Shown here piece by piece: positions 29,836 through 60,658 of a stretch of 64,000 bases of DNA (positions are counted from its first letter, which is position 1; every line of letters starts with the position of its first letter). Where the stretch lies: contig NZ_SWMU01000001.1 in assembly GCF_006120725.1 (NCBI RefSeq), positions 124,001-188,000 on the forward strand, given 5' to 3'. The notes beneath the pieces are model-generated. The model ran no database searches. It had not been told where the DNA came from and saw only the letters and a list, made by a program, of their open reading frames with translations. Source of the DNA: Mesohalobacter halotolerans. Lineage in GTDB: Bacteria > Bacteroidota > Bacteroidia > Flavobacteriales > Flavobacteriaceae. A program made the translations under genes and the position numbers.

Positions 29836-29842
29836 ACTTTTT

Positions 29843-30232
29843 TTAATTTGAAAATTTGGTGATTTGATGATTTGAAAATTTTGTTTTCTTGGAAGACGAC
29901 AAGATTTTACTGATTATTTTAATTATAGCTTCAAGTTCTTCAAATAATTCGTTTTCTGGGTTTGGATAGTGTTTTGAAACTTTACATAATTCTAACCAAT
30001 ACTCTGTTTCATCTGCTTCTTTTGCAGAAATTTTAAATTTGTGAATAAAATCCGCTTTACTCTCTGCATTCTGAGCCTCTCTAATATTTGCTCCTATCGA
30101 AGTTCCACTTTTAAACAGTTGGGTGGCCATTTCAAATTTATTAAGTGACCTGAGCTTTTCGGTATATTCAATAATTTTCAACGCAAATTTGAATGTTAAT
30201 TTTACAATTAGGTTTTCTTTATCATTTCTCAT
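29843..30232 (-). CDS. Four helix bundle protein (23S rRNA intervening-sequence family)
   Basis: 129 residues, the expected length for the four-helix-bundle/23S-IVP family (related in fold to Avd, the accessory protein of diversity-generating retroelements). Motifs are LFKSGTSIGANIREAQNAES and the following FKISAKEADETEYWL helix. The last residues, KFSNHQITKFSN, are encoded by the flanking 8-bp array, and the stop codon lies at the array's first unit. The gene sits between scoA and scoB, so it is an insertion into an operon. It is basic and probably binds nucleic acid; that is inference from the family. Confidence 0.88.
   Translation of the reverse strand: MRNDKENLIVKLTFKFALKIIEYTEKLRSLNKFEMATQLFKSGTSIGANIREAQNAESKADFIHKFKISAKEADETEYWLELCKVSKHYPNPENELFEELEAIIKIISKILSSSKKTKFSNHQITKFSN
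29845..29884. repeat. Degenerate 8-bp tandem array on the 3' side of the helix-bundle gene
   Basis: Five units in exact 8-bp register: AATTTGAA, AATTTGGT, GATTTGAT, GATTTGAA, AATTTTGT (core RATTTG with two variable bases). The stop codon of the helix-bundle gene and its last dozen codons lie in this array. The array at the other end has the same core in inverted orientation. Confidence 0.85.
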
Positions 30233-30244
30233 CTTAATAAACTT

Positions 30245-30276
30245 TCAAATTATCACATTTTCAAATTACCAAATTA
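30245..30276. repeat. Degenerate 8-bp tandem array on the 5' side of the helix-bundle gene
   Basis: Four units in exact 8-bp register: TCAAATTA, TCACATTT, TCAAATTA, CCAAATTA. The reverse complement has the core TAATTTGA, so it is inverted relative to the array at 29845-29884. The stop codon of scoA (30274-30276) lies in the last unit. Confidence 0.85.
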
Positions 30277-30966
30277 CCTAACCGTACGTTGTTCAATTCG
30301 TTTTTCATAGTGTTTCCCTTCATAAATGCGTTGCACGAAAATGCCCGGGATATGAATAAAGTTGGGATCGAGTTCGCCAGGTTTAACCAACTCTTCAACC
30401 TCAACGACCGTTATTTTTGCCGCGCCACACATATTGGCATTAAAATTTCTTGCGGTACCTTTAAAGACTAAATTCCCAGCCTCATCTCCTTTCCAGGCTT
30501 TGATAAATGCAAAATCGGCTTTGAAAGCTTTTTCGAGAATATGTGGTTTTCCATCAAATTCACGAACTTCTTTGCCTTCTGCAACTTCTGTACCGTAGCC
30601 TGCTGGTGTATAAAATGCTGGGACTCCATGCTGTGCTGCTCTACAGCGTTCAGCTAAAGTGCCTTGCGGAATTAAATCGACTTCCAAATCTCCGCTCAGC
30701 ATTTGCCTTTCAAACTCAGCGTTTTCACCAACGTAAGAAGAAATCATTTTTTTGATTTGTTTATTTTGAAGAAGTAGCCCCAAACCAAAATCATCAACAC
30801 CGGCATTGTTTGAGATACAAGTCACACCTTTGATTTTTCGGTTGACGAGTTCGGCGATACTGTTTTCTGGAATGCCGCTTAAGCCAAATCCTCCAAGCAT
30901 CAATGTCATATCATCAGAGACACCCTCTAAAGCGGATTGAGCGTTTTTCACAACTTTGTTTATCAT
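30274..30966 (-). CDS. scoA: 3-oxoacid CoA-transferase, subunit A
   Basis: 230 residues with the class I CoA-transferase alpha-subunit glycine loop [13 protein letters not shown] (about 26-38) and conserved segments [13 protein letters not shown] and FYTPAGYGT. It pairs with ScoB (29182-29835). It is the first gene of this minus-strand run (scoA, helix-bundle insert, scoB, hemJ, kinase, hydratase). The C-terminus EQRTVR lies next to the inserted array, whose first unit supplies the stop codon, so the insertion may have trimmed or replaced the original end. Confidence 0.93.
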
Positions 30967-31129
30967 AAGTTCATATTTGATGGACTAAAATACAAATTTT
31001 AAAAGTTGAATATTGCTAAGAGTCTGTTTTTTTAAAATAGATCAGTAAAAAAACAATGTATTGTTTGGTAAATGTCTTCAGTCAATTTATATTTGCACCC
31101 GCTTAAGAAAAAACGTTCATAAAAATATT

Positions 31130-31213
31130 GGAGAGGTGGCAGAGTGGTAATGCAGCAGATTGCTAATCTGTAGACGGTAACACGTCTCCAGGGTTCGAGT
31201 CCCTGTCTCTCCG
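31130..31213 (+). tRNA. tRNA-Ser (GCT)
   Basis: 84 nt with acceptor stem GGAGAGG pairing to TCTCTCC (one G-U), discriminator G, anticodon loop TTGCTAA giving anticodon GCT, the long variable arm expected for serine, and T-loop GGTTCGAGTCC. No CCA is encoded. Confidence 0.95.
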
Positions 31214-31228
31214 CAGAAAAAAATAAAA

Positions 31229-31254
31229 GTTCACTTCGACTTCGCTCAGTGAAC
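31229..31254. repeat. REP-like inverted repeat
   Basis: GTTCACT, a 12-nt loop TCGACTTCGCTC, then AGTGAAC. A related element with GCACT/AGTGC arms and nearly the same loop lies at 63222-63243. It may end the tRNA-Ser transcript, but no T-tract follows. Confidence 0.7.
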
Positions 31255-31298
31255 ACAAAGATTTCAGAACAACTCTATAAAAAAGTTCTAAACACTTT

Positions 31299-31373
31299 CG
31301 GGGTGTAGCGTAGCCCGGTCATCGCGCCTGCTTTGGGAGCAGGAGGTCGCAGGTTCGAATCCTGCCACCCCGA
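31299..31373 (+). tRNA. tRNA-Pro (TGG)
   Basis: 75 nt with acceptor stem CGGGGTG pairing to CACCCCG, discriminator A, anticodon stem CCTGC/GCAGG around loop TTTGGGA with anticodon TGG, and T-arm GCAGGTTCGAATCCTGC. It is followed 10 bp later by a terminator. A partial second copy lies at 31425-31465. Confidence 0.95.
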
Positions 31374-31383
31374 CAAAGAAAAG

Positions 31384-31411
31384 CCAGCAATTTTTTATTG
31401 CTGGTTTTTTT
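31384..31411 (+). terminator. Terminator of tRNA-Pro
   Basis: An 8-bp stem CCAGCAAT/ATTGCTGG with a 5-nt loop, then seven T. Confidence 0.88.
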
Positions 31412-31424
31412 ATTATAAAATTAA

Positions 31425-31465
31425 AGGTCGCAGGTTCTCCCGAAACTTCGGGACTGCCACCCCGA
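31425..31465 (+). pseudogene. 3' part of a second tRNA-Pro interrupted by a palindrome
   Basis: AGGTCGCAGGTTC and CTGCCACCCCGA match the tRNA-Pro variable loop, T-arm and acceptor 3' strand exactly. Between them, in place of GAATC of the T-loop, is the 16-nt palindromic TCCCGAAACTTCGGGA. The following CAAAGAAAAGCCA is also shared with the intact gene. The 5' two thirds of the tRNA are missing. It looks like a truncated tandem tRNA duplicate that took up a dispersed palindrome. Confidence 0.75.
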
Positions 31466-31472
31466 CAAAGAA

Positions 31473-31506
31473 AAGCCAATAATCTTTTGATTGTTGGCTT
31501 TTTTAT
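31473..31506 (+). terminator. Terminator of the broken tRNA-Pro copy
   Basis: Stem AAGCCAATAATC with GATTGTTGGCTT (one G-U) and loop TTTT, then a T-tract. It is homologous in position to the terminator at 31384-31411. From 31507 to about 31775 I see no gene, only AT-rich sequence. Confidence 0.85.
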
Positions 31507-31775
31507 TTGTGAGCGTTCAAAGCTCTGCTTTGATAAGTGAATCAAATAAAAAAAGACATAGGCACCGACAGGTGCTGGCTTTTCTTTAGCATCAACCCCA
31601 TATTTAGGATCATGTTAATAATCCTGCCACTCCAAAAATAGAACCGTTAAAACTTTTTTTTGAAGAGAAAAGCTCTAAATTAATGCTAAAGTGATGATCT
31701 CTCTTTGACTCGGCTAATATTAGCAATTTGAACCTCTTTATGTTGTAATATCATTACAGAAAGTTGTTTCCTTAT

Positions 31776-32541
31776 TTACTTAAAATCTGTTGAAATGGTA
31801 GTAATTCCACCTGCTGTGATTTCTTTGAGAACAGTTTCATTAAAAGAAATGACGCCGTAATCTCGAGCCAGTTCAAAACCTTTTAAAATTCCAACCGATT
31901 GCTTTTTTGAAGAATAAATGAGTTTAAAGTTTTTATACCTTTCAATTTTGGGTTGTAGGAGCCTTAAAGCTTTATAAATGTCGTTCTCATAATCTTGATA
32001 GACTGCAGAATATTTTGATAATTCGGGGGCGTAGTTGGTCTAAAATGTAAACCTTATCGTCTTCCAGTAAATCGATACAGGCTTCAATATCCCTCAGATT
32101 AGCAGGCATAATGACGTAATAATTATAGGTATCTAAATTTTTTTTAATGATATCAGCAAATAATTGTTGGTCATAATGATGGAAAAATACATCAATCTGC
32201 ACTTCATTTGCTAAATATCTGATCAAAGCCTTATATAAATCTTCCTTTATGGCATTTAATTCGTCAAACAATAAGAAAACTTTGCTTTGTATCCGGATAT
32301 TGTTATTCACAACATAATATCCTTTACCACCAGTGGAGTTGATGATGCCCCTGTTCTTGAGTTCTGAAAAAGCAGTTAAGACCGTATCCCTAGAAATCTG
32401 ATATTTGCTTTTTAAAGCATTTAAAGAAGGAAGCTAATCTCTGGTTTTTAACTCGCCATTGCTGATAGACTCTTCGATTGAAGCTATAATTTGTTTTTAG
32501 GTAGGTATACTTTTATCAATGCCGGTAGAAATCTTATTCAT
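31776..32541 (-). pseudogene. GntR-type regulator with sugar-binding-like sensor domain (decayed)
   Basis: Read from ATG at 32541, the frame encodes MNKISTGIDKSIPT, a stop, then a winged-helix with KSKYQISRDTVLTAFSEL and a second stop just before SLNALKSK. It continues into a periplasmic-binding-protein-like ligand domain (intact stretch 31987-32310) and is then frameshifted; the end of the sensor domain (GILKGFELARDYGVISFNE) continues in another frame to a stop at 31776. Two nonsense codons and one frameshift make it a pseudogene. Regulators of this build often precede surface-sugar genes in Bacteroidota, which fits the sugar transferase just upstream at 32562. Confidence 0.8.
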
Positions 32542-32561
32542 TGATTAAATATATCTTTGAT

Positions 32562-33173
32562 TTATCCTAAAATAGTCTTGATCACGTACATAAGATCATT
32601 TTTAAAGCTATAATTTTCAACATAGGCTTTATTGATCTTGACTTTTTGAGGCCAGATGACCTCATCATTATACTGCTTTGGGTTATCTTTTTGGGCTAGC
32701 AATTCTTCTTCATCTCTAAAAGCTAAAGATGCCGGACCAGTAATTCCGGGTTTAACAGATAAGATGATTTTATCGTCACCTTCCAATTGATCAGCATAGC
32801 CTGAGACATCGGGTCGCGGGCCAACAAAGCTCATTTCCCCAAAAAGCACATTCCATAACTGAGGGAGTTCATCGAGTTTGGTTTTTCGAAGAAAATGTCC
32901 AAATTTGGTAATACGCGGATCTTTAGAAGTGGTGATAAACGTAGTGTCTTCACCATCAATTATCATAGTTTTCAATTTTAGTAATTGAAAAGGTTTACCG
33001 TATTGACCGATACGGGTTTGGCTTAGAAGACCAAAGGATTTTGTGTGGATTGAAGTCAAAATCAATAAAATTCCTAAAAAAAGAAAACTCAATATTAGAC
33101 CTATTAAGGAAAGACTGATATCGAGTAGTCTTTTAATAAATTTTTGTTTAATGCTTAAAGGCTCACTAATCAT
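32562..33173 (-). CDS. Initiating sugar-phosphate transferase (bacterial sugar transferase family)
   Basis: 203 residues of the PF02397 family: an N-terminal membrane segment (about 15-40), then KLKTM, RKTKLDELPQLWNVLFG and SFVGPRPDVSGY, the conserved catalytic and binding motifs. It moves a sugar phosphate from a UDP-sugar to undecaprenyl phosphate at the inner membrane. It is isolated from the main cluster by decayed DNA and an OmpA gene. A second family member lies at 36446-37000. The extra charged segment FRDEEELLAQKDNPKQY resembles longer family members found in flavobacterial polysaccharide loci. Confidence 0.9.
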   Translation of the reverse strand: MISEPLSIKQKFIKRLLDISLSLIGLILSFLFLGILLILTSIHTKSFGLLSQTRIGQYGKPFQLLKLKTMIIDGEDTTFITTSKDPRITKFGHFLRKTKLDELPQLWNVLFGEMSFVGPRPDVSGYADQLEGDDKIILSVKPGITGPASLAFRDEEELLAQKDNPKQYNDEVIWPQKVKINKAYVENYSFKNDLMYVIKTILG

Positions 33174-33413
33174 TCAATTATTACATATTAATTTTTTTAA
33201 AACATCAGCATTGAGAAAATATCCTAATTTATAATTCTTATTCAGTATTGTTCGATAAGAAAGAAATGACCGCTTCGCTGTTTGAAACAAGAACTTAGAC
33301 TCAACTTTAACTATCATATACACAGCTGAAAAAATACACCTAAAATAACTGTTTTTTATGATATGAGCTAATTTTTTAAAAACAAGGTATAAAAAGGAAC
33401 ATACATACTCAGA

Positions 33414-33548
33414 CTATATTTCATCGATGATTAAAAGTATTTCCTTTATTTTAATCGGACAATAATAATTCTTATTTATTTCTTCAATTAGCGTTGACTT
33501 ACCCGATCCGTTAGGACCGCAAAACAATCTAAGATGTTTCGTTGCCAT
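33414..33548 (-). pseudogene. Zeta-toxin-like kinase, N-terminal fragment
   Basis: 44 codons starting MATKHLRLFCGPNGSGKST, a Walker A P-loop (GPNGSGKST) in the context usual for zeta-toxin/UDP-GlcNAc kinase-like ATPases. The frame stops at 33414, so most of the kinase domain is missing. It directly follows a decayed antitoxin-like reading frame. This looks like the remains of a toxin-antitoxin pair. Confidence 0.6.
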
Positions 33549-33560
33549 TATTGATTTTGA

Positions 33561-33752
33561 TCATCTTTTTATTCTTTTTTTCGTGCCGAAAGTCGCTTTC
33601 CTTAGCTTTATTTGTTTTCCATCCGGGTCTACACGATATAAAAATTTTTTTTAAAGTAATATAAGGCTGACCCAAGGCTTTTGTAATACTAATAGATTCT
33701 TTACTAGCTTTTTCTTTGCTTTGATCAAATCTTTTGTTTTTAATTCACTCAT
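33561..33752 (-). pseudogene. Antitoxin-like small gene preceding the zeta fragment (frameshifted)
   Basis: From ATG at 33752 the reading is MSELKTKDLIKAKKKLVK and then, after a frameshift, a segment ending in a basic KKRIKR tail that stops at 33561, 13 bp before the zeta-like ATG. The spacing is that of an antitoxin-toxin operon. Identification rests on position and size only, and homology is not proven. Confidence 0.45.
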
Positions 33753-34423
33753 CTTGCAAAATTAATTTAAATATGTTGAAATTATCTGGTTTGCGTATTT
33801 CTTTTCAAAGTCAAAGAATGAAATGCCCGATATCATCCCATCTGGAAACTTCAAAATTACTTGATCTTTCAATTGTTGTCAAAAGATTCCTACTATCATC
33901 AGAATTATGTTGTCATACTGAACGTAGTGAAGTATCTTTCCTTAGTAAATTTCATTTGTCCACAAGAAATACCTCTGCCTATTTGCATCTTATATGAGAT
34001 ACAGAGCAGGTAGGCATGAGCAACGAAGTTTTCCTGACGGCTAGATGCTTCTCCGGTAGGACAAAAGATTATGAGAAGGAGATCACAACGACTGCCCCTG
34101 TGAGTTTCCCAAAATAGCGTTGACTGTTTTGGTTAATATACTCAATTGAGTTTTAACATAATGTTTTAAAACCTAAAATTTTTAAAGACGGCCTACTTTT
34201 TATGGAAGCCTACAACTTAGTTGGGTGTTTTTATATTAAACTAGGTCTCGATACTTTTTCTTTGTCAAAAACAAAGAAAAAACTCGAAGTGACAGTTCTC
34301 GATAATGAAATCCAGTAAGGATCAACATACATTTCGCTAAAAAACACACCCATACTTACTCTTGAATCACCAAACCTAAAAACCTAGAGGAAACCAAAGT
34401 TGACCATCACTATATACAAAAAA
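33753..34423. other. Non-coding, decayed stretch with dispersed repeats
   Basis: No supportable gene. It contains a REP-like unit (TGTCATACTGAACGTAGTGA, 33911-33930 and a few bases beyond) of the widespread flavobacterial type, and a segment near 34242-34300 (CTCGATACTTTTTCTTTGTC, later CTCGAAGTGACAGTTCTCGA) of the same kind. Short open frames here translate repeat sequence and are not genes. The 230 bp at 33174-33413 also show no gene. Confidence 0.6.
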
Positions 34424-34448
34424 TCCCCGTGAGCAGAGCTCACGGGGA
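34424..34448 (-). terminator. Hairpin terminator after the OmpA porin gene
   Basis: An 11-bp stem TCCCCGTGAGC/GCTCACGGGGA with a 3-nt loop, followed on the minus strand by an A/T-rich tract. It is 27 bp past the stop codon. Confidence 0.85.
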
Positions 34449-34475
34449 ATTCATATTTAAAATAGGTATTAAATA

Positions 34476-35765
34476 TTATTTCAATTCAAACGTGACACGT
34501 CTTACCATTTGTCTTGCTGTTTCAGAATCTTTACTCACTGAGTTATCAATTCCTCCAGCTTTATAGCTTAGACGATCAGCGTCGATCCCAGCAGCTATGA
34601 CTACATCATAGACACGCTTCGCACGGTTCTCAGATAAGGTAGTATTGTACTCTGAGTTGCCAATTTCATCGGCATAACCAGTTAATACAGCTTCAGATCC
34701 TGGATTGGCTTTCATGAACTTTACAATCTGGAAGATGGCATTCACTGAGTAATATTCCGGTTGTGTACTGTCAAATTGGAAGTACACATTGATCATACCC
34801 TCATTGGCTAATGACTTCACGATACTGGATCCATCGGCAGACATCGCATCACTGGCATAAGCTTTAGAAACGTAATTTTCATCTAAGGCAGTTTCCAGCT
34901 CATCCGGAATTCCATTTTTGTTTTGATCAATAGACTCCCCTTTTGTATTGACTGCAACACCAGCAACGGTATTAGGCTCTCTGTCCAGATAATCCGGCAC
35001 GCCGTCTCTATCGGTATCCATCATACCATTTTGGATTTCATCCAGTTCATTCTCTAATTGAGTAATACGCTCTCCGAATACTTTAGCAGAATAATTATCA
35101 ACCCAGTCTGCATGCTTGTCGTTGCTTCCTAGGTAAAAAGTTACCCCAGCACTAGCCATTGCAACAAACCCATCAAAATCTCTACGGGTGGGTCTTGGGT
35201 TTCCATCGATCCCCGCATTATGTTTTGCATTGGCGATAACACTTAAATCAGCAAATAAAGCCACGCGATCTGAAAGTTTGACCTGTGGAGTTAAGCCTGC
35301 AACCAATCCAATGGTGTTGTCGTTATCTGAACTGGTGATGGCATCGTCAAAATTAAAAGAAGAGACCTGTACCCCGGCATGACCTAAGACATTTAACCAG
35401 TCTGCAAATTCATTGAAGTTCAGGATTGAGCCTAAACCGACAACCGCTTCTCCTGTAAAGGTCGTCAGCCTTGTCTCAAAAGGAGTTGATCCTCCGCTGT
35501 TTTCGAGTTGCGAATAAAATCCACCCACTTTAAGTCCAAACTTTTCGTTGAACATATACCGGACAGACAGATTGTAAGATAAATCGCCAAACTCAGCAGT
35601 CTTATATCCTCCCGTAAATGGCGTAAAGGCTTTAACAAGCCCTAAGCCTGCATCTACCGACCATTTATTGTAATCTTCTGGAGTATCCACGTTCATATCG
35701 TCCTGAGCAAATCCGAATTGTGTGAATACTACTAAGGCGAGTGTGTAAAAAGTGATTTTTTTCAT
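34476..35765 (-). CDS. OmpA-family outer-membrane porin with TSP3 linker
   Basis: 429 residues: signal peptide (about 1-20), an eight-stranded-barrel-like N-terminal domain (about 30-220), a short coiled stretch (about 225-245), a calcium-binding thrombospondin type 3 repeat (DTDRDGVPDYLD, about 250-262) and a C-terminal OmpA domain (about 315-429, with AVLTGYADEIGNSEYN and LSENRAKRVYDVV). It links the outer membrane to peptidoglycan. It is a single-gene unit with its own terminator between two sugar-transferase loci. The leader upstream (35766-36005) has no other gene. Confidence 0.92.
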   Translation of the reverse strand: MKKITFYTLALVVFTQFGFAQDDMNVDTPEDYNKWSVDAGLGLVKAFTPFTGGYKTAEFGDLSYNLSVRYMFNEKFGLKVGGFYSQLENSGGSTPFETRLTTFTGEAVVGLGSILNFNEFADWLNVLGHAGVQVSSFNFDDAITSSDNDNTIGLVAGLTPQVKLSDRVALFADLSVIANAKHNAGIDGNPRPTRRDFDGFVAMASAGVTFYLGSNDKHADWVDNYSAKVFGERITQLENELDEIQNGMMDTDRDGVPDYLDREPNTVAGVAVNTKGESIDQNKNGIPDELETALDENYVSKAYASDAMSADGSSIVKSLANEGMINVYFQFDSTQPEYYSVNAIFQIVKFMKANPGSEAVLTGYADEIGNSEYNTTLSENRAKRVYDVVIAAGIDADRLSYKAGGIDNSVSKDSETARQMVRRVTFELK

Positions 35766-36005
35766 AATGTGTTTTTAAATAATGTTTAAAAATAAGTTTT
35801 TTTACTGAATACAAGAAACAGAAACTTAAATTTTTAAAAACTTTATGTAAGCTTACCCTAATACCGAACTTGTAAGCTTTCTCTAAAAAATTAAGCCAAA
35901 TTGCTTTTAATATTTAAAAAGGGTTTGTAGGGTTTTGATTTAAATAGAGTTGGTATTTATCACTTATTAATCAGTGTAAGCAGCATCCAACAAAGATAAC
36001 CTGAC

Positions 36006-36443
36006 TTACATAAACGAGTCATAATACCACCTATCGCTGTCAAAGCGGTAATCATCTTTAACTGATTCTTCTACTTTTTTATCAGAAAAAACCTGTAATG
36101 ATGAATTATCCTTTAAGGATTTAATAGCTGATACATAGCCGGCCGGGATGAATAAAATGCCGTGATCTTCTGCTTTAAGAATATATTCTTGGGGTGAGAG
36201 ATTGAAGGACGGGCTTACCCAGTCATCAGGCTTAACCAAAAGTATCTTTAACATTCCTGAAGTGACCTTAAACCAGTTGTTCTCCTGCTGATGTCCATGC
36301 CAGCCTCTAAAACTTTCCACCTCTATAGAAAATGTCCGAATAATATTTAGTTCTTGCAAATTAAAATCATTATAAGCATAGAGAACACCTCTTTCATCTT
36401 TAAAAGTTTCAGGTTGAATTACGAAGGGGGTTTTATTTTCCAT
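36006..36443 (-). CDS. WxcM/FdtA-like cupin sugar isomerase
   Basis: 145 residues forming a single cupin with metal- or base-type histidines H49 and H51 (GWHGHQQENNWF) and the double-stranded beta-helix pattern. The family includes sugar 3,4-ketoisomerases (FdtA, QdtA) and dTDP-sugar epimerase-like proteins acting on dTDP-4-keto-6-deoxyglucose. dTDP-4-keto-6-deoxyglucose is the product of RmlB, encoded at 53826-54887. It is the last gene of the polysaccharide run and lies 2 bp from the sugar transferase. Whether it isomerises C3/C4 or epimerises C3/C5 cannot be told from the sequence. Confidence 0.78.
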   Translation of the reverse strand: MENKTPFVIQPETFKDERGVLYAYNDFNLQELNIIRTFSIEVESFRGWHGHQQENNWFKVTSGMLKILLVKPDDWVSPSFNLSPQEYILKAEDHGILFIPAGYVSAIKSLKDNSSLQVFSDKKVEESVKDDYRFDSDRWYYDSFM

Positions 36444-36445
36444 AT

Positions 36446-53382: not shown

Positions 53383-53422
53383 GATTTTCGCGGATTAAGT
53401 CGGATTTGCACGGATTATTTGG
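53383..53422. repeat. Degenerate 10-bp tandem array on the 3' side of GxxExxY
   Basis: Four units in 10-bp register: GATTTTCGCG, GATTAAGTCG, GATTTGCACG, GATTATTTGG (core GATT plus variable bases). It starts 9 bp beyond the rmlA start codon and contains the stop codon of the GxxExxY gene (53415-53417). Confidence 0.82.
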
Positions 53423-53833: not shown

Positions 53834-54887
53834 AAGAATACTGCCCATTATAATATTTCTGATAAGCTCCACTCGTAACATTTTCCATCCATTCCTCATT
53901 ATCAAGGTACCAGTCAATTGTCTTTGAAAGCCCTTCTTCAAAGGTAACACTCGGTTTCCAGCCTATTTCTTTATTTATTTTCGAAGCATCAATGGCGTAG
54001 CGCAAATCGTGCCCTGGTCGGTCTTTGACATAGGTAATTAATTTTTCACTCTCCCCTATTGGACGGCCTAGTTTTTTGTCCATGATCTGACAAAGCAATT
54101 TGATAAGATCGATATTTTTCCATTCATTAAAACCTCCGATATTGTAGGTTTCCTTATTTTTCCCTTTGTGCAAAACAAGATCAATTGCTCTGGCATGGTC
54201 AATCACATATAACCAATCTCTGGTATAATTGCCATCACCATAAACTGGCAAGGCTTTATTGTTCATAATATTATTAATAAACAGAGGAATTAATTTTTCC
54301 GGAAATTGATTTGGTCCATAATTATTAGAACAATTAGAAATCACATAAGGCATACCGTAAGTTTCGCCGTAAGCCCTGACAAAATGATCGGAACCTGCTT
54401 TGGAAGCAGAATAAGGAGAATTGGGGTCATAAGCAGTGGTTTCTTCAAATAAACCGGTATCACCAAGTGTTCCATAAACTTCATCTGTGCTAATGTGATA
54501 AAATAATTTATCTTTAAAATTACCATTCCAAAGCTTTTTGGCAGCTTCCAACAAATTTAAAGTCCCCATGATATTGGTCCTGGCAAAAGAAAGAGGATCT
54601 TTAATAGATCGATCCACATGAGATTCTGCTGCCAGATGTATAACCATATCAAAATTATATTTCTGAAAAGCCTGATCTACAGTCTTTGCATCTGTTATGT
54701 CAATTTTGAGAAATTTAAAATTATCATAATTCTCTATATCTCTAAGGTTCTCCAAATTCCCTGCATAGGTCAAAAAATCTAGATTGTAAATATGGTCATC
54801 TGGGTATTTCTGAACAAACAAACGTACCACGTGAGACCCTATAAATCCTGCGCCACCTGTAATTAATATATTCCTATTATTTGTCAT
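53826..54887 (-). CDS. rmlB: dTDP-glucose 4,6-dehydratase (RmlB/RffG)
   Basis: 353 residues. The NAD-binding loop is GGAGFIG (11-17), with ESHVDRSI, HISTDEVYG and YSASKAGSDHFVRAY holding the YxxxK pair. It converts dTDP-glucose to dTDP-4-keto-6-deoxyglucose, feeding RffA/WecE for Fuc4NAc and possibly the WxcM-like cupin. Its stop codon lies in the array that precedes the inserted GxxExxY gene. It is 50 bp after WecC, on the same strand. Confidence 0.95.
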   Translation of the reverse strand: MTNNRNILITGGAGFIGSHVVRLFVQKYPDDHIYNLDFLTYAGNLENLRDIENYDNFKFLKIDITDAKTVDQAFQKYNFDMVIHLAAESHVDRSIKDPLSFARTNIMGTLNLLEAAKKLWNGNFKDKLFYHISTDEVYGTLGDTGLFEETTAYDPNSPYSASKAGSDHFVRAYGETYGMPYVISNCSNNYGPNQFPEKLIPLFINNIMNNKALPVYGDGNYTRDWLYVIDHARAIDLVLHKGKNKETYNIGGFNEWKNIDLIKLLCQIMDKKLGRPIGESEKLITYVKDRPGHDLRYAIDASKINKEIGWKPSVTFEEGLSKTIDWYLDNEEWMENVTSGAYQKYYNGQYSSN

Positions 54888-54937
54888 AAATATTTTACGT
54901 AATCTACAAATTATCTCAATATCATTTTATAAAGAGA

Positions 54938-56146
54938 TCATACCATAACTCCGGCAAAGTCTAATACTACTTTATCAGTATTCCGTTCAAGTGTTTTGAA
55001 CTCTTTATGGGCTACTAAAAAAACAATAATATCAGCTTTTTGAACAGCTTCTTTGTAATTGGTTAATTTAAACACATTATGGTCTTCAATATTAGGCTCA
55101 ACGACAAAATAGTCTTCATTTTGAGCATCCTGCATGATCTTTTGGGCGATATACTTGGCTGGAGATTCTCTTAAGTCGTCTATATTGGGCTTAAAAGCTA
55201 GGCCCATGATGGCTATAGATGGTTTTCGGCCTTTTTTGATCTCAAATTCTAATTTAGCGGTTTTTACTTTTTCCGCACACCAAAAGGATTTATAATTATT
55301 CACTTCCCTGGCCGTCCCTATAATTCTACTTTCCATGGGATATTCAGAAGTGATAAAATAAGGATCTACAGCAATGCAATGTCCTCCAACACCACACCCA
55401 GGTTGAAGTATATTCACTCTGGGGTGTTTATTCGCCAGCTTTATCAGTTCCCATACATTAATTTCTGCTTTATCACAGATCAAAGACAATTCGTTGGCGA
55501 ATGCTATCTGAACATCTCGGCTTGAATTCTCAACCAATTTACACATTTCCGCTGTACGGGCGTTAGTGGCATGTAAGTCCCCTTGTACAAACTGTCGGTA
55601 AAAAGCCAAAGCTTTTTTAGTAGCCTCTTCATTCACCCCACCAATCACTCTATCATTATGGACCAGTTCATGCATAACATTACCAGGCAATACACGTTCC
55701 GGACAGTAAGCCAAATGAATCTTACCTTCAAGCTCAGGGCGTTTCGAAAAGATCAATTTCATCATTTTTTCGGTCGTACCCACCGGTGATGTGGATTCAA
55801 TGATATATAGGTCCCCCTCTTTTAACAGGGGGATGATGCCTTCCGTAGCAGCCTGTACATATGAAATGTCCGGCTCATGATTGCCTTTAAATGGAGTGGG
55901 CACCACTATAAGATATGTATCAGCTACTATTGGTTTTGTGTCCGCCTTAAGATAACCTTCATTCACGGCTTTTTCGACAGCTTTATCTAGATCCGGTTCT
56001 ACAATATGAATTTTTCCGGCATTAATCGTATCTACTACTTTTTGAGAAATATCTACCCCGTGAACAGGTATTTGACTATTTGCAATGAGTGCTGATGTAG
56101 GAAGTCCGATATATCCAAGACCTATGGTGACAACTTGTGGGTTCAT
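54938..56146 (-). CDS. wecC: UDP-N-acetyl-D-mannosamine dehydrogenase (WecC-like)
   Basis: 402 residues. The NAD-binding start is GLGYIGLPT (about 9-17), and the catalytic loop GCGVGGHC holds C251 and the nucleophile C257, as in UDP-ManNAc/UDP-sugar dehydrogenases. The central dimer and C-terminal substrate domains have normal length. It oxidises UDP-ManNAc to UDP-ManNAcA. WecB is directly upstream, separated from it only by a helix-bundle element. A WecC assignment is preferred over WbpA because of this pairing with WecB. Confidence 0.9.
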   Translation of the reverse strand: MNPQVVTIGLGYIGLPTSALIANSQIPVHGVDISQKVVDTINAGKIHIVEPDLDKAVEKAVNEGYLKADTKPIVADTYLIVVPTPFKGNHEPDISYVQAATEGIIPLLKEGDLYIIESTSPVGTTEKMMKLIFSKRPELEGKIHLAYCPERVLPGNVMHELVHNDRVIGGVNEEATKKALAFYRQFVQGDLHATNARTAEMCKLVENSSRDVQIAFANELSLICDKAEINVWELIKLANKHPRVNILQPGCGVGGHCIAVDPYFITSEYPMESRIIGTAREVNNYKSFWCAEKVKTAKLEFEIKKGRKPSIAIMGLAFKPNIDDLRESPAKYIAQKIMQDAQNEDYFVVEPNIEDHNVFKLTNYKEAVQKADIIVFLVAHKEFKTLERNTDKVVLDFAGVMV

Positions 56147-56171
56147 TTTATTTATTTTTATTTAATGATTT

Positions 56172-56219
56172 GCGTATTTGCACATCTGCTTAACTGCATA
56201 TTCGCGTATTTGCGAATTC
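56172..56219. repeat. Degenerate 8-bp tandem array on the 3' side of the helix-bundle gene
   Basis: Six units in exact 8-bp register: GCGTATTT, GCACATCT, GCTTAACT, GCATATTC, GCGTATTT, GCGAATTC. The stop codon of the adjoining helix-bundle gene (56218-56220) overlaps the last unit. It is in direct orientation relative to the array on the other side (56584-56639). Confidence 0.85.
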
Positions 56220-56577
56220 ACTTTTCAAATTTATTATATAAACTGTTTAACTTGTTGGTTATTTTCTCTAATTCACTTCTTATAGCATTATACTCTTGAC
56301 TCTCAATAAGTTTTAAGTCATTTGCTATAATTATCAGATTAATCACTTCAATTGCAGAACTAAAAGCCTGGTTTATGAACCGTGCTTTATCTTTTTCTGT
56401 AATCCGTGACATACCTTCTGCAATATTTGCAGCGATACTTACTGACGCTCTCTTTAACTGGCTGGTTATACCATACTTTTCTTCAACAGGAAAGCCTGTC
56501 GTCATCTCATAAATTTGTTTGACAAACGCTCGTGTATCCTGCCAAACTTCTAATTTTTCGAAATAATAGGTTTTCAT
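56218..56577 (-). CDS. Four helix bundle protein (23S-IVP family)
   Basis: 119 residues from the ATG at 56577 (an earlier in-frame ATG at 56595 would add six residues encoded by the array, so I prefer the later one). Motifs are KLEVWQDTRAFVKQIYEM, LKRASVSIAANIAEGMSR and FSSAIEVINLIIIAN, the standard helices of the family. It is bracketed by 8-bp arrays and lies between wecB and wecC. Paralogues are at 29843 and 60181; their sequences differ clearly, so they are not recent copies of each other. Confidence 0.9.
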   Translation of the reverse strand: MKTYYFEKLEVWQDTRAFVKQIYEMTTGFPVEEKYGITSQLKRASVSIAANIAEGMSRITEKDKARFINQAFSSAIEVINLIIIANDLKLIESQEYNAIRSELEKITNKLNSLYNKFEK

Positions 56578-56583
56578 TTTCCA

Positions 56584-56639
56584 GCGTATTCGCAAATTTG
56601 CTTATTCGCGTATCTGCATATTCGCACATTTGCTTTTTA
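56584..56639. repeat. Degenerate 8-bp tandem array on the 5' side of the helix-bundle gene
   Basis: Seven units in exact 8-bp register: GCGTATTC, GCAAATTT, GCTTATTC, GCGTATCT, GCATATTC, GCACATTT, GCTTTTTA. It starts 6 bp from the helix-bundle start codon. The stop codon of wecB (56637-56639) lies in the last unit. Confidence 0.85.
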
Positions 56640-57758
56640 CTCTCTTAACTCTTTAATGTATTCGACAATACGTTGACAAGCTTTTCCATCTCCATAGGGA
56701 TTGTGTAATTCACTCATCGATTTATACCTCTCTTCATCCTCTAACAAACTTCGTGTTTCCTGTATGATTTTTTCTTTATCTGTACCCACCAGTATTACTG
56801 TTCCTGCTTCAACTGCTTCCGGTCGTTCTGTAGTGTCACGCATGACTAATACAGGCTTTCCAAGACTAGGAGCCTCCTCCTGCACACCACCAGAATCAGT
56901 TATGATCATGTACGATTGATTCATCAACCATATAAACTCGGGATATGCCAACGGATCAATAAGTTTAATGTTACTTATATCAGAAAGTAGATCGTAGACT
57001 GGTTTTTGTATCTTAGGATTAAGATGCACAGGATAGATGATTTGAACATCAGGCTTGGTTACTGCTATTTCTTTTAGAGCTTCACAAATGTTTATAAAGC
57101 CCTGTCCGTGATTTTCACGGCGATGCCCGGTAACCAAAATAAGCTTTTTGTCTGTATCGACCATTTCTTTTAGCCGATTGATCTTTTTATTATTGAGATC
57201 CTTTACTTTTTCAGTACTAAATAAGAGGGCATCGATGACCGTGTTTCCTGTCACTAAAACCTGATCTTCAATCACATTTTCCTTCAATAAATTTTCCTTG
57301 GCCGTTTTTGTCGGAGCAAAATGAAAATCGGTGATACGCCCGGTCACCTGCCGGTTCATTTCTTCAGGGAAAGGAGACCATTTATTCTGAGTTCGTAGAC
57401 CAGCTTCGATATGACAAACTTTTGCACCACTATAAAAGGCAGCAATACTAGCCGCCATGGTTGTAGTAGTGTCTCCATGAACATATACATAATCAGGTTT
57501 GAAATCTTCCAAAACCGCTTTAAGTTCAGTAATGATCGTGGCGGTTAATGTGTAAAGATTCTGATTTGGTCGCATTAAGTTTAAATCGTAATCGGGTTTA
57601 ATTTCAAAAAAATCAAGCACCTGGTCGAGCATTTCACGATGCTGAGCTGTCACACAAACTTTAGTCGACATCTGATCATTCCTTAAAAATTCCTTAACCA
57701 GAGGTGCCATTTTAATGGCTTCTGGGCGCGTTCCGAAAATAATAAGGTTTTTTTTCAT
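56637..57758 (-). CDS. wecB: UDP-N-acetylglucosamine 2-epimerase (WecB-like)
   Basis: 373 residues of the non-hydrolysing UDP-GlcNAc 2-epimerase family. Motifs are GTRPEAIKMAPL near the N-terminus, GDTTTTMAASIAAFYSGAKV, HIEAGLRT and GVQEEAPSLGKPVL. It interconverts UDP-GlcNAc and UDP-ManNAc, the substrate for WecC. It is the first intact biosynthetic gene of the polysaccharide operon after the mosaic region. The 240 bp upstream (57759-57997) hold no recognisable gene. Confidence 0.94.
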   Translation of the reverse strand: MKKNLIIFGTRPEAIKMAPLVKEFLRNDQMSTKVCVTAQHREMLDQVLDFFEIKPDYDLNLMRPNQNLYTLTATIITELKAVLEDFKPDYVYVHGDTTTTMAASIAAFYSGAKVCHIEAGLRTQNKWSPFPEEMNRQVTGRITDFHFAPTKTAKENLLKENVIEDQVLVTGNTVIDALLFSTEKVKDLNNKKINRLKEMVDTDKKLILVTGHRRENHGQGFINICEALKEIAVTKPDVQIIYPVHLNPKIQKPVYDLLSDISNIKLIDPLAYPEFIWLMNQSYMIITDSGGVQEEAPSLGKPVLVMRDTTERPEAVEAGTVILVGTDKEKIIQETRSLLEDEERYKSMSELHNPYGDGKACQRIVEYIKELRE

Positions 57759-57997
57759 AGGATTATTGCTTTTTACTGGCGATTGATGAATAATGACATT
57801 ATCACCTTCTCAGCCTCTGGAGTATTGACTATATTTAGTCCTAGTCTTGGTCTTTCTTTTTGTTATATCCGAGATTATAGGTAGCTAACACTTTTACAAA
57901 AGTCAGGGTACTCAGCTATGATTTTATGCTAACTAAAAATAAGGTTTCCTTTCGTTTTAGTCTTTTTCACAAACTTAATTATTCATTTATGATTAAA

Positions 57998-58190
57998 TCA
58001 TACATGCCCTATCGTATAGATTTTAAAACCTATGTCTTCAAGTTGTGTTCTATCCAATAGTCTTCTCCCATCAAACACAAACGCAGGTTTTTTCATGTGG
58101 TCATAGATACGTTGCCAGTCATAGGTTTTAAACTCATCCCATTCGGTTAAAATGGCTATGGCGTGTGCGTCTTTGCAGGCTTCATCTGCT
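57998..58190 (-). pseudogene. UDP-glucose dehydrogenase, C-terminal remnant
   Basis: The minus strand reads [19 protein letters not shown] and continues with the FVFDGRR and IGHV end of UDP-glucose/GDP-mannose dehydrogenases, ending in a stop at 57998. Only about 63 codons remain; the catalytic Cys region is gone. At about 58190 the sequence changes abruptly to the tail of a different sugar gene. Confidence 0.8.
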
Positions 58191-58350
58191 TAATTTTATT
58201 TTCATTCTCCAGGTACCATTTAAGCGTCTTTTTAATACCCTCTTCTAATTCATTCTTCGCTTCCCAAGCAATATCATCCATCAAACTTCGACTAAAATTT
58301 AGAGTAGTTTGCTGTATTCTTCGCTGAAATTTTTCTTGAAAACTATTCAT
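58191..58350 (-). pseudogene. Nucleotide-sugar SDR gene, 3'-end remnant (tail copy 1)
   Basis: The frame opens MNSFQEKFQRRIQQTTLNFS and ends WEAKNELEEGIKKTLKWYLE, then runs into Ugd remnant sequence at 58190. The final segment matches the C-terminal helix of GDP-fucose-synthase-like SDR enzymes (E-x-GIKKT-x-x-W-x-L-E-N). The same N-terminal part occurs again at 62723-62902. Confidence 0.65.
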
Positions 58351-58520
58351 TTATGCTTACTAGATTAATCAAATTTAGTATTTTTTGCTTATTGAGACAA
58401 TCACTTTATTGTTAATCTGGAGTCGAGGGTCTGTTTCGTTTATTCGTGTATTCGTGTATTCGTGTATTCGTGTATTCGTTTATTAGAGTATTCGTGTATT
58501 CGTGTATTCGTGTATTCGTG
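58252..58520. repeat. Duplicated block (copy 1; partner at 62804-63072)
   Basis: About 269 bp, nearly identical and without indels in the two places. It runs from the SDR tail through TTTCTTGAAAACTATTCATT and the GAGTCGAGGGTCTGTTTCGT leader into the first ten units of the TATTCGNN array, after which the arrays diverge. Confidence 0.88.
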
Positions 58521-58688
58521 TATTCGATTATTCGGGTGTTCGAGTATTCGTTTATTCGTGTATTCGTGTATTCGTGTATTCGGGTGTTCGTGTATTCGAC
58601 TATTCGAGTATTCGTTTATTCGAGTATTCGTGTATTCGAGTGTTCGATTATTCGAGTATTCGACTATTCGACTATTCGATTATTCGGT
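58441..58688. repeat. TATTCGNN degenerate octamer array A (31 units)
   Basis: Thirty-one consecutive units of exactly 8 bp with no insertion or deletion. The core TATTCG is nearly constant (TGTTCG three times, TATTAG once), while positions 7-8 vary: TG in 13 units, AG in 6, TT, AT and AC in 3 each, GG in 2, GT in 1. Position 7 is never C. The array is open in all three plus-strand frames because 8 bp is not a multiple of three. The stop codon of the ATPase gene (58672-58674) lies inside it. Confidence 0.93.
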
Positions 58689-59877
58689 TCGCCAACCACT
58701 TCAGCGCATTCAATTTGCGTATTCCTCCAAAGTTTTGTTCGGGAAGTACTGTGTCCATGGTTAAAAGTAGTTTAGGGTAATTATCTTTTATACGTTCCAG
58801 TGGTCGGAGTTCACGTTTCAAGGTGTTCTCTTGTTCTGTAGAGTAGGCCACTTGTATGTAGAGTCGTTCTTCCCCTGAGCCAATAGCTAAAAAATCTACT
58901 TCTAGATTATCAATAACACCAACAAACACTTGATATTCCCTTCTCAACAATTCTAAATAGATGATATTTTCAAGGATATGACCATAATCTTCTGTTCTAT
59001 CTCCAGCTATTAATCGGCGAAGACCAATATCCACCGCATAATATTTGGAATTACTTGAGAAAACTTTTCTTCCCTTGACATTGAAACGATTTGCACGATA
59101 AACCAGCATGCTGTCTTCAATGCCGCTCATATAGTTGGCGACAGTTTTGTTGGTAATCTTACTTCCCGAACTGTTTAAGGTATTTGTTATTTTATTAATA
59201 CTATGCAAGTTACCTATTTCAGCATACATATAACGAATTAACTGCTCCAAAACACTAACATCAGTTACATTTAATCGCTTCACAATATCTTTCAATACCA
59301 CTGTTGAATAAATGCCTTCGAGGTAATGGCGTTTTTTTATATCATCGATCATTATTGCATAAGGAAAACTAGACTTCAGGTAAGTATTGTAGGCTTGCTG
59401 TAGGTTTTCGTCCTTGTTCACCGAAAGGAATTCCTTAAATGATAAGGGCAACATTTTTAATTCAACATACCTTCCAGTTAATAAAGTAGCTAATTCACCG
59501 CTTAAAAAGTATGCATTAGAACCTGTTAAATAGATATCTAAATTTTTATTCAGTTGCAAGCTATTTACTACACGCTCAAATTCAGTTACATTTTGAATTT
59601 CATCCAGAAAAAGATAATATTTCACATTTTCTTTAATTCTTTCCTTGATGTAGGTATTTAAGGCTATAGGATTTCGCAGTTCATCAAAATCAATATTCTC
59701 AAAGTTTATGCTTATAATTTGTTTCTCATCAATTCCATCTTCAATCAGATGATTTTTAAACATTTCAAATAAAGTAGATTTACCACAGCGTCTCACCCCA
59801 GATACCACTTTGATTACATGTTCGTCTTTCCAATCTGTTAGAAATTGTAAATATGTAGGTCTATTTATTTGTATCAC
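58672..59877 (-). CDS. ATP-binding protein, AAA_14/DUF4143 type
   Basis: 401 residues: Walker A GVRRCGKST (27-35), Walker B in YYLFLDEIQN (about 89-98), sensor region LTGSNAYFLSGELATLLTGR, then a DUF4143 domain (about 200-370) including LLRREYQVFVGVIDNLEVDF, which resembles a PD-(D/E)XK nuclease-like end. The last residues (ANRIIE) are encoded by the TATTCG array. The upstream region has TATATTTG on the minus strand (59882-59889), matching the -7 box very close to the ATG, so the leader is very short. Functions of the family are unclear; some members act in phage defence or toxin-like systems. A homologue is at 61176-62426. Confidence 0.85.
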   Translation of the reverse strand: MIQINRPTYLQFLTDWKDEHVIKVVSGVRRCGKSTLFEMFKNHLIEDGIDEKQIISINFENIDFDELRNPIALNTYIKERIKENVKYYLFLDEIQNVTEFERVVNSLQLNKNLDIYLTGSNAYFLSGELATLLTGRYVELKMLPLSFKEFLSVNKDENLQQAYNTYLKSSFPYAIMIDDIKKRHYLEGIYSTVVLKDIVKRLNVTDVSVLEQLIRYMYAEIGNLHSINKITNTLNSSGSKITNKTVANYMSGIEDSMLVYRANRFNVKGRKVFSSNSKYYAVDIGLRRLIAGDRTEDYGHILENIIYLELLRREYQVFVGVIDNLEVDFLAIGSGEERLYIQVAYSTEQENTLKRELRPLERIKDNYPKLLLTMDTVLPEQNFGGIRKLNALKWLANRIIE

Positions 59878-59948
59878 ACTACAAATATATTGATAAATTT
59901 ATACGTTTTTGGAATTGAATCCAATTTTATCTATTTAGTTGTTCGGTA

Positions 59949-59975
59949 CTCGCCTGAACGTTGTAGACGGGCAGG
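59949..59975. repeat. CGCCTGAACGTTGTAG insert unit, copy 1 (variant)
   Basis: CTCGCCTGAACGTTGTAGAC followed by GGGCAGG, one of four copies of an insert found within or at the edge of the TATTCG arrays (others at 60600, 63097 and 63172). It lies just before array B. Confidence 0.75.
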
Positions 59976-59981
59976 TTCGGG

Positions 59982-60189
59982 TGTTCGTGTATTCGAGTAT
60001 TCGTGTATTCGAGTATTCGATTAATCGTGTATTCGTTTATTCGTGTATTCGAGTATTCGATTATTCGGGTATTCGGGTGTTCGTGTATTCGAGTATTCGA
60101 GTATTCGATTATTCGAGTGTTCGTGTGTTCGTGTATTCGTGTATTCGATTATTCGATTATTCGATTATTCGAGTGTTCGATTATTCCAT
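59982..60189. repeat. TATTCGNN degenerate octamer array B (26 units)
   Basis: Twenty-six units in exact 8-bp register from TGTTCGTG (59982) to TATTCCAT (60182), with TG, AG, AT, GG or TT at positions 7-8 and no indels. It is in direct orientation with arrays A, C and D. The stop codon of the helix-bundle gene (60181-60183) lies at its end. Confidence 0.92.
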
Positions 60190-60540
60190 TTTACTTTTGA
60201 CAAATTTCTTATATCCGGATAATAATTTTCTAGTCTTTTCTATCATAGGAAATAAGGTTGTTTCTGCTTCAGGGTTTAGATAATTTAAATGTTTAGCTAT
60301 AATTAATTGCGTGTCTAATTCAGCGGCAGAACCAATTGAATAACTTACAAACTTATGTAGCTCTTTCCAACTGTTCCTACCACTTCCCTCAGCTATATTT
60401 GATGAAATGGATATGACTGAGCGCCTTATTTGATTGGTTAAACCAAATTGCTCACTTCTAGGAAAGTTTTCTGTGTGTTTATAAACTAGAGTAACTAAAT
60501 CTATTGACACTTTCCATACATCTAAATCTTTATGATTCAT
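60181..60540 (-). CDS. Four helix bundle protein (23S-IVP family)
   Basis: 119 residues. Motifs are DLDVWKVSIDLVTLVYKHTE, QIRRSVISISSNIAEGSGR and IGSAAELDTQLIIA, standard for the family. The ATG (60538-60540) lies 4 bp from array C and the stop lies at array B, so the coding region fills the gap between the two TATTCGNN arrays. This is the only member not inside an operon. It is more similar to other flavobacterial IVP proteins than to the two paralogues in this window, judged by eye. Confidence 0.9.
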   Translation of the reverse strand: MNHKDLDVWKVSIDLVTLVYKHTENFPRSEQFGLTNQIRRSVISISSNIAEGSGRNSWKELHKFVSYSIGSAAELDTQLIIAKHLNYLNPEAETTLFPMIEKTRKLLSGYKKFVKSKME

Positions 60541-60543
60541 GAT

Positions 60544-60658
60544 TATTCGGGTGTTCGGTTGTTCGTTTATTCGATTATTCGACTATTCGACTATTCGATT
60601 ACCCGCCTGAACGTTGTAGTCGGGCAGGTTCGTGTATTCGTGTATTCGTTTATTCTGG
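60544..60658. repeat. TATTCGNN degenerate octamer array C, with one insert unit
   Basis: Seven units (60544-60599), then a 35-bp insert starting TACCCGCCTGAACGTTGTAG (60600-60634), then three more units (60635-60658). In the first seven units the last two bases are GG, GT, TT, AT, AC, AC and AT. The ATG of the helix-bundle gene abuts its left end. Confidence 0.88.

What the first reader, a model, noticed from the sequence alone, without database searches (positions are those of the whole stretch)
29836..60658. Small orphan genes that each fill the gap between two short-period degenerate arrays
All four small orphan genes (helix bundle at 29843, 56218 and 60181; GxxExxY at 53415) share one design seen directly in the sequence. 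There is an array, then the start codon at or within about 13 bp of it, the gene, a stop codon lying inside or touching a second array, then the array. For the helix-bundle genes both flanking arrays of one gene use the same core, but cores differ between elements: RATTTGNN at 29.8 kb, GCNNATTY at 56.2 kb and TATTCGNN at 60 kb. The arrays are in exact 8-bp register for the helix-bundle genes and 10 bp for GxxExxY. This argues that the gene arrived inside, or creates, the array. A helix bundle related to Avd, or a PDDEXK-like nuclease, may be the only protein the unit encodes. I know of no named element of this design.
Basis: partly seen in the sequence, partly recalled or inferred. Interest (0 to 1): 0.88.

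Follow-up and report, generated by a model that had tools for sequence, protein, structure and literature searches.

The report
Array-flanked helix-bundle genes in operons
Small genes for a helix-bundle protein sit between the genes of bacterial operons as self-contained units whose ends are short repeated arrays, often mirror images of each other, and the repeat goes with the protein lineage, which suggests a widespread mobile element that recognises its own ends.

Summary
The helix-bundle part of the finding is real and general. At 29.8, 56.2 and 60.2 kb the 8-bp arrays exceed shuffles; the 10-bp repeats of GxxExxY do not (p 0.20, 0.11). In the genus (Psychroflexus, by a contig match) 53 of 101 sampled PF05635 genes have arrays on both sides, against 1 of 301 control genes; of 76 named loci from many phyla, 50 do. 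At two operon sites 16 of 25 relatives without a recognised gene show no array, 7 show arrays and 2 another hairpin (by eye). In 11 of 16 picked pairs at unrelated sites, shared DNA stops at the unit. The repeat core follows the protein lineage. Arms are mostly inverted in loci not titled Bacteroidota (28 of 32), mixed in the genus; inverted arms keep a strand polarity and tend to pair in predicted RNA. This resembles the 23S rRNA intervening sequence, whose ORF encodes the same family, here between protein genes. Best reading: an IVS-type element whose protein, pentameric in relatives, recognises its array; recognition, processing and movement are inferred. Arrays without a gene also occur.

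The parts
30239..30281 (-). 5' arm (gene strand) of the 29.8 kb unit, 8-bp AATTTGNN array
   Evidence: TRF; 0/1000 shuffles and scan; inverted relative to the 3' arm (by eye)
29843..30232 (-). helix-bundle gene (PF05635/TIGR02436) between scoA (30274-30966) and scoB (29182-29835)
   Evidence: neighbours
29845..29881 (-). 3' arm of the 29.8 kb unit; lies in the last ~12 codons of the gene, next to its stop
   Evidence: p 0.008
56587..56635 (-). 5' array of the 56.2 kb unit, 8 bp, near-palindromic GC[GA]AATNN
   Evidence: 0/1000
56218..56595 (-). helix-bundle gene (TTG start as listed; ATG at 56577) between wecB (56637-57758) and UDP-ManNAc dehydrogenase (54938-56146) genes
56168..56218 (-). 3' array of the 56.2 kb unit
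   Evidence: 0/1000
60541..60655 (-). 5' array of the 60.2 kb unit, CGAATANN (TATTCGNN on +), interrupted by a CCCGCCTGAACGTTGTAGTCGGGCAGG palindrome
60181..60540 (-). helix-bundle gene of the TATTCG class
59976..60190 (-). 3' array of the 60.2 kb unit, about 26 copies, direct orientation; holds the stop codon
53415..53801 (-). GxxExxY gene (TIGR04256/PF13366) between rmlA and dTDP-glucose 4,6-dehydratase genes; its flanking 10-bp repeats are not beyond chance
58435..58686 (.). TATTCGNN array without a helix-bundle gene, overlapping the 3' end of an AAA_14/DUF4143 gene
62987..63212 (.). second TATTCGNN array without a gene, in a segment shared (by eye) with 58.28-58.69 kb

Best explanation
Each unit is one small mobile element: 5' array, one PF05635 helix-bundle gene, 3' array, lying in sense between genes of an operon. 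It is an mRNA-operon counterpart of the 23S rRNA intervening sequence (IVS). Shown: arrays and gene are mostly present or absent together; the core repeat goes with the protein lineage; arms are mostly inverted in loci outside Bacteroidota and mixed in the genus; in inverted units the 5' arm is G-rich on the gene strand; own arms pair in predicted RNA more than swapped arms; the protein is under purifying selection in the pairs tested. Inferred: in the operon transcript the arms form a long imperfect stem that RNase III or another nuclease can open, freeing the gene's message and sparing the neighbours; the protein, a homopentamer in solved relatives, binds the array, about one protomer per 7-9 nt repeat, and this recognition serves the element's control, its movement, or both. 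How it inserts is unknown; no transposase or reverse transcriptase is encoded in the unit.
For: Arrays on both sides: 53/101 genus genes v 1/301 controls (0/74 when both gaps are >=60 bp); 12/30 phylum sample; 50/76 named loci; ParE genes 0/28 upstream and 2/27 downstream. Gene-less sites without arrays: 9 at scoA-scoB, 7 at the thiolase site; units of at least three array classes, by eye, at the thiolase site. In 11 of 16 picked non-syntenic pairs shared DNA stays within about 125 bp upstream and 95 bp downstream of the gene. Core v protein: 96 non-syntenic pairs >=60% identical, mean similarity 0.468 v 0.233 permuted, 0/500. Inverted 28/32, direct 1, in loci not titled Bacteroidota. Polarity 72/82 and 70/79. 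RNA arms with >=12 pairs: 26/32 v 11 with a swapped arm, 29/44 v 18, 20/30 v 6, 21/40 v 9. Co-directional with both neighbours 94/101 v 139/264 in the own genome. dN/dS 0.03-0.12 in 13 pairs. Unit counts peak at 4-5. Solved relatives 2gsc and 2rld have 5 chains each. PMC4990558 (abstract and passages) reports, for the Coxiella IVS, terminal inverted repeats, a variable number of heptameric repeats in the region upstream, RNase III excision, and a homopentameric Xanthomonas relative.
Against: About a third of genus units (32/101) are direct and pair little; the 60.2 kb unit has 0 arm-arm pairs, and the 29.8 kb unit as a whole folds little better than shuffles (z -1.09, 10 of 100 as good). By a stricter test (own arms above the 98th percentile of mismatched arms) only 24 inverted, 31 direct and 3 both of 101 genus units, and 10, 3 and 1 of 30 phylum units, pass; 25 inverted and 15 direct of 76 named. 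Arrays without a gene occur: TAACTGA x3 arrays have a helix-bundle gene within 1.5 kb at 1 of 12 sites looked at; TATTCG clusters at 4 of 11; one ATTTG array in 400 kb of the own genome. No near-identical copies within a genome among the sampled genes (best 63% of 218 pairs), so no sign of recent transposition; most close pairs are syntenic. The G-rich 5' arm could simply be a ribosome-binding region. PMC4990558 argues that the Coxiella ORF is decaying and probably not translated. No binding or processing data.
Confidence: 0.6

Rival explanations
1. The arrays are a general class of intergenic heptamer/octamer repeats that expand by slippage and spread independently; helix-bundle genes insert into or persist next to them.
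For: Arrays occur without the gene. PMC4679880 (abstract, passages, one section) describes TAACTGA arrays in Beggiatoaceae, Cyanobacteria and Bacteroidetes; 'intervening', 'helix bundle' and 'S23' do not occur in its text.
Against: 16 of 25 gene-less relatives at two sites lack arrays. Insertion into an array would leave direct, not inverted, arms (28/32 inverted in loci not titled Bacteroidota). The core follows the protein across unrelated sites. A scan of 400 kb of the own genome gave 3 strong 7-9 bp arrays.
Confidence: 0.2
2. A DNA-level element: the protein, with a host or partner enzyme, recognises the arrays as transposon ends; RNA pairing is incidental.
For: Direct-orientation units share cores as well as inverted ones; shared DNA between units at unrelated sites ends in or near the arrays in 8 of 16 picked pairs.
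Against: Sense orientation in 94/101 and strand polarity point to the transcript; no enzyme in the unit; no near-identical copies within a genome in the sample.
Confidence: 0.3
3. Inverted arrays are a translational control of the helix-bundle gene only: the G-rich 5' arm is a ribosome-binding region that the 3' arm masks, with no mobility.
For: Polarity, pairing, synteny of most close pairs.
Against: Different unit classes at one site and unit-limited similarity at unrelated sites.
Confidence: 0.15

Closest known systems
23S rRNA intervening sequence (IVS) with S23p/IVP ORF
   Same: Same protein family (PF05635); terminal inverted repeats forming a stem around the ORF; in Coxiella a variable number of heptameric repeats in the region upstream (PMC4990558, abstract and passages seen)
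   Different: Lies between protein-coding genes of operons, not in rRNA; the stem is built from degenerate arrays; the core differs by protein lineage; some units have direct arrays
Avd of diversity-generating retroelements
   Same: Related helix bundle: weak profile matches at 56.2 and 60.2 kb (E 1e-4 to 5e-4, below cut-off), none at 29.8 kb; PMC10053308 (passage seen) notes the resemblance of PF05635 to Avd
   Different: No reverse transcriptase or template repeat in the unit
Heptamer repeats (TAACTGA of Beggiatoaceae; STRR of cyanobacteria, the latter recalled)
   Same: Short-period intergenic arrays, many next to start codons; shorter repeat-free intergenic regions in some relatives (PMC4679880)
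   Different: No encoded protein linked to them; TAACTGA x3 arrays checked here have a helix-bundle gene within 1.5 kb at 1 of 12 sites
REP/RAYT systems and MITEs (recalled, not tested)
   Same: Small palindromic units between genes
   Different: Here a helix-bundle gene and no transposase; the ends are arrays with lineage-specific cores

Membership tests
PF05635 / TIGR02436 helix-bundle (IVP) family | profile match above the curated cut-off | tested here: met
   80.3, 117.4 and 118.9 bits v 33.8; 92.7, 111.8 and 109 v 24
23S rRNA IVS | ORF of the S23p/IVP family inside the element | tested here: met
23S rRNA IVS | terminal inverted repeats pairing around the ORF | tested here: inconclusive
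   >=12 arm-arm pairs in 96 of 146 folded units (26+29+20+21); at 29.8 and 56.2 kb 17 and 36 pairs, at 60.2 kb 0
23S rRNA IVS | located inside an rRNA gene | tested here: not met
   Rfam at gathering threshold finds no rRNA in the window or in 16 sampled loci; window neighbours are protein genes
23S rRNA IVS | excised from the transcript by RNase III | not testable with these tools
   needs RNA data
Avd / diversity-generating retroelement | Avd equivalog match | tested here: not met
   21.5 and 20.5 bits v cut-off 80, none for the 29.8 kb gene
Avd / diversity-generating retroelement | reverse transcriptase and TR/VR repeats nearby | not tested
   none encoded within the unit; the surroundings were not searched for it
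Insertion sequence / transposon | encodes its own transposase or recombinase | tested here: not met
   the unit has room only for the PF05635 gene
Insertion sequence / transposon | target-site duplication | tested here: inconclusive
   by eye, empty and filled sites are too diverged to define edges
GxxExxY as the same kind of unit | flanking arrays beyond chance | tested here: not met
   p 0.195 and 0.108; either side in 6 of 29 in the genus. For it: arms above the 98th percentile of mismatched arms in 8 of 29 (6 direct, 2 inverted)

The most novel reading that the evidence does not exclude
PF05635 units are a distinct, ancient class of mobile element present in Bacteroidota and many other phyla, in which a pentameric ring protein reads a lineage-specific 7-9 nt repeat, one repeat per protomer, at both ends of its own gene. 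rRNA intervening sequences would be the special case that landed in rRNA, and part of the solo heptamer and octamer arrays in genomes would be scars of lost units.
Probability: 0.35. Interest if true: 0.92.

Novelty: new variant of a known kind. Interest (0 to 1): 0.78.

Why it matters
PF05635 proteins are common (116 of 148 genomes sampled from the phylum) and, to my knowledge and in the passages seen, have no established function. A recurring architecture, a repeat that changes with the protein lineage, and clean empty sites turn an orphan family into a testable system: which nucleic acid does the protein bind, is the stem processed, and how does the unit move? It would also give rRNA intervening sequences a family of relatives in ordinary operons, and offer a source for part of the degenerate heptamer and octamer arrays seen in bacterial genomes.

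Tried and rejected
GxxExxY as the same design: rejected, though a weak excess remains (6 of 29 v 21 of 301 controls; 8 of 29 share arm sequence above the 98th percentile). AAA_14/DUF4143 genes as array genes: 1/29 upstream and 5/29 downstream at p<=0.02; one of these arrays (L240) has the core of a helix-bundle unit about 1 kb away (L044); rejected. Arrays as a mark of any small mobile gene: ParE toxins 0/28 and 2/27; rejected. Arrays as a general feature of this genome: 301 control genes and a scan of 400 kb (3 strong arrays, of which only L163 was looked at); rejected for that sample. Claim that published-type TAACTGA arrays are helix-bundle scars: 1 of 12 sites, not supported. Whether cognate arrays always lie next to a gene: no for TATTCG (4 of 11 clusters); for the 9-bp class 5 of 6 clusters with three or more pattern hits adjoin a helix-bundle gene (one search places against one search places; one gene is broken, one is of another class), and places with one or two hits were not checked. 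Target-site duplications could not be defined. A solved-structure search also listed cholera-toxin-type B chains at E 0.03-0.4; taken as chance and not followed. No structure was predicted.

Rows dropped and sampling: the genus set is a part, taken from the higher-scoring, mostly uninterrupted places, whose list was itself capped; one search kept 101 of 113 profile hits (near full length, distinct protein). The phylum set is 30 top-scoring places, one per genome. Of the 32 loci not titled Bacteroidota three are untitled bacteria, and the archaeal bin L346 has no array. One search counted 29 of 31 GxxExxY loci given; one search gave 29 of 30 ParE loci and counted 28 (27 downstream), and counted 29 of 30 DUF4143 loci; one search used a random 40 of the 101 genus units; one search used 16 pairs that I picked; one search looked at 12 of at least 17 listed sites. 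The site searches covered 27 genus genomes and gave 25 and 24 loci that I compared. Of the 7 TATTCG clusters without a gene within 1.5 kb, 5 were searched by profile (one cut by a contig end) and 2 were judged from the capped list.
Full report
OBSERVATION. The window is contig C1:124001-188000 of a 2.65-Mb genome. The genes at 29.8, 56.2 and 60.2 kb match PF05635/TIGR02436 (23S rRNA intervening sequence protein, helix bundle); 53.4 kb matches GxxExxY. Six arrays at the helix-bundle genes have period 8 and beat 1000 local shuffles (p 0.008 for one, 0/1000 for five); the two GxxExxY flanks do not (p 0.195 and 0.108).

IS IT GENERAL. The genus has 27 genomes held, 26 with PF05635 matches. In a sample of 101 distinct near full-length genes, arrays (p<=0.02 v 60 shuffles each) lie upstream in 65, downstream in 72, on both sides in 53 and on either side in 84. 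Controls from 400 kb of the own genome: 13, 9 and 1 (both) of 301; with gaps of at least 60 bp on both sides 5, 2 and 0 of 74. ParE genes: 0 of 28 and 2 of 27. Phylum sample: 12 of 30 both, 27 of 30 either. Of 76 usable named loci 50 have both and 67 either; among the 32 not titled Bacteroidota (Balneolota, Verrucomicrobia, Gastranaerophilales, Planctomycetes, proteobacteria, candidate phyla and others by record title; three untitled; one archaeal bin, itself without an array) 21 and 30. Where significant, the best period is 7 in 79 arrays, 14 in 22, 8 in 15 and 9 in 1.

ONE UNIT. At scoA-scoB (names) 25 genomes were compared: 9 have gaps of 15-48 bp without arrays, 13 have gaps of 295-563 bp (intact or decayed units by eye; G016 and G019 look like a different allele), G009 has two arrays head to head without a gene, and G010 and G012 keep only what looks like a right arm. 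Downstream of a thiolase gene 24 genomes were compared: 6 have gaps of 3-17 bp and one of 54 bp without visible arrays; 10 match the helix-bundle profile (some only in part), with at least three array classes by eye; 4 hold arrays without a recognised gene; 2 hold other hairpins; 1 could not be read to the next gene. In 16 hand-picked pairs at mostly unrelated sites, similarity is confined in 11 to within about 125 bp upstream and 95 bp downstream of the gene (array-to-array matches aside): 8 include array sequence (5 of these are TATTCG-class pairs), 3 only gene sequence; in about 5 it runs out further on one side. Most close pairs are syntenic and thus probably vertical. No pair within a genome exceeds 63% identity among the sampled genes (218 pairs).

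CORE FOLLOWS PROTEIN. Ordered on a protein tree, cores and periods cluster by eye: TATTCGNN (8), TTGACCAG (8), CTATNGNNN (9), TTNTCNG, TAGGTNN, TTAGANN and others (7). For 206 units, 96 pairs without homologous neighbours at >=60% identity (79 units) have mean core similarity 0.468 v 0.233 in 500 permutations, none reaching it. Pairs are not independent, so this is an association, not a precise probability.

ORIENTATION AND RNA. Inverted similarity exceeds direct by 5 or more in 28 of 32 loci not titled Bacteroidota (direct in 1), 23 of 44 Bacteroidota named loci (direct 10) and 36 of 101 genus units (direct 32). By the stricter test against mismatched arms, 24 inverted, 31 direct, 3 both and 43 neither of 101 genus units; 10, 3, 1 and 16 of 30 phylum units; 25 inverted and 15 direct passes in 76 named. 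In inverted units the 5' arm has more G than C in 72 of 82 arrays (the reverse in 4) and the 3' arm more C than G in 70 of 79 (the reverse in 7); control flanks show no such bias (134 v 145 upstream, 155 v 131 downstream, of 301). Predicted RNA of the whole unit has at least 12 arm-arm pairs in 26/32, 29/44, 20/30 and 21/40, v 11, 18, 6 and 9 after swapping the 3' arm. The Pirellula-titled locus L331 has a stem of about 30 bp enclosing the gene, z -6.45; the 29.8-kb unit shows the stem but z is only -1.09. Genes are co-directional with both neighbours in 94 of 101 v 139 of 264 in the own genome, in 23 of 30 of the phylum sample and in 61 of 76 named loci.

PROTEIN. dN/dS is 0.03-0.12 in 13 pairs, with dS above 1 in two. 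Solved relatives 2gsc and 2rld have five chains each; PMC4990558 states that the Xanthomonas protein is a homopentameric toroid. Unbroken repeat counts peak at 4-5 per arm, which fits but does not prove one repeat per protomer; the idea of RNA wrapped on a ring, as in TRAP, is recalled and inferred.

LITERATURE. PMC4990558 (abstract and passages): Coxiella IVS with inverted ends, a variable number of heptameric repeats in the region upstream, RNase III excision; it also argues that the Coxiella ORF is decaying and probably not translated. PMC4679880 (abstract, passages, one section): TAACTGA repeats, no link to this protein. PMC10053308 and PMC11270868 (passages): resemblance to Avd; IVP ORFs in rRNA insertions of CPR. 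PMC10910872: one figure-legend passage. Nine searches of the held library (several lists capped) showed among the listed titles and abstract starts no paper that describes array-flanked PF05635 units in operons; that library lacks most subscription papers, so this is weak evidence of novelty.

AGAINST. Arrays without genes exist: 11 of the 12 TAACTGA sites looked at, 7 of 11 TATTCG clusters (one of the seven, in G026, lies about 5 kb from a helix-bundle gene) and an ATTTG array after a gene in the own genome. Some may be scars (G005, G009, G012, G020 at the two sites), others may not be. Direct units do not fit a stem model. The mechanism of movement is not shown.

VERDICT. The helix-bundle observation is real, general and partly explained: an IVS-type unit in operons with array ends whose core goes with its protein. 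GxxExxY does not belong to it on this evidence.

Noticed in passing
window 60541-60655, 59930-59990, 63090-63212: A palindrome CCCGCCTGAACGTTGTAGTCGGGCAGG interrupts the TATTCG arrays; similar pieces appear in other loci of the genus.
   Followed up: no
window 60791-60852 and 62606-62667: Stretches of TTGACTG/GCCATTG heptamers, alike in the 62 bases shown, in two copies.
   Followed up: no
window 58280-58690 and 62840-63212: Segment duplication (by eye) that carries a TATTCGNN array, beside two AAA_14/DUF4143 genes (58672-59877, 61176-62426).
   Followed up: partly
L163 (G000:C5) about 790-842: ATTTGANN array starting at the stop codon of a gene, with no helix-bundle gene found within the 2.6 kb searched; same core as the 29.8-kb unit.
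   Followed up: partly
G003 and G019, thiolase site (L379, L368): A different hairpin insert (CTCTCCTTTGGAGAGG type) occupies the place where relatives have helix-bundle units.
   Followed up: no
L010, L011, L198-L225: Several GxxExxY genes have 2-3 copies of a GC-rich unit (CTTTGCGNN, CGCAGAGNN) at one or both ends; weak, but possibly another kind of unit.
   Followed up: partly
G007:C4 (L115) and G004:C9 (L103): Broken helix-bundle pieces lie among TATTCG arrays upstream of a glycosyltransferase-like gene in G007; G004 has the array before a similar gene with no helix-bundle piece found within 1.5 kb (gene name by eye).
   Followed up: no
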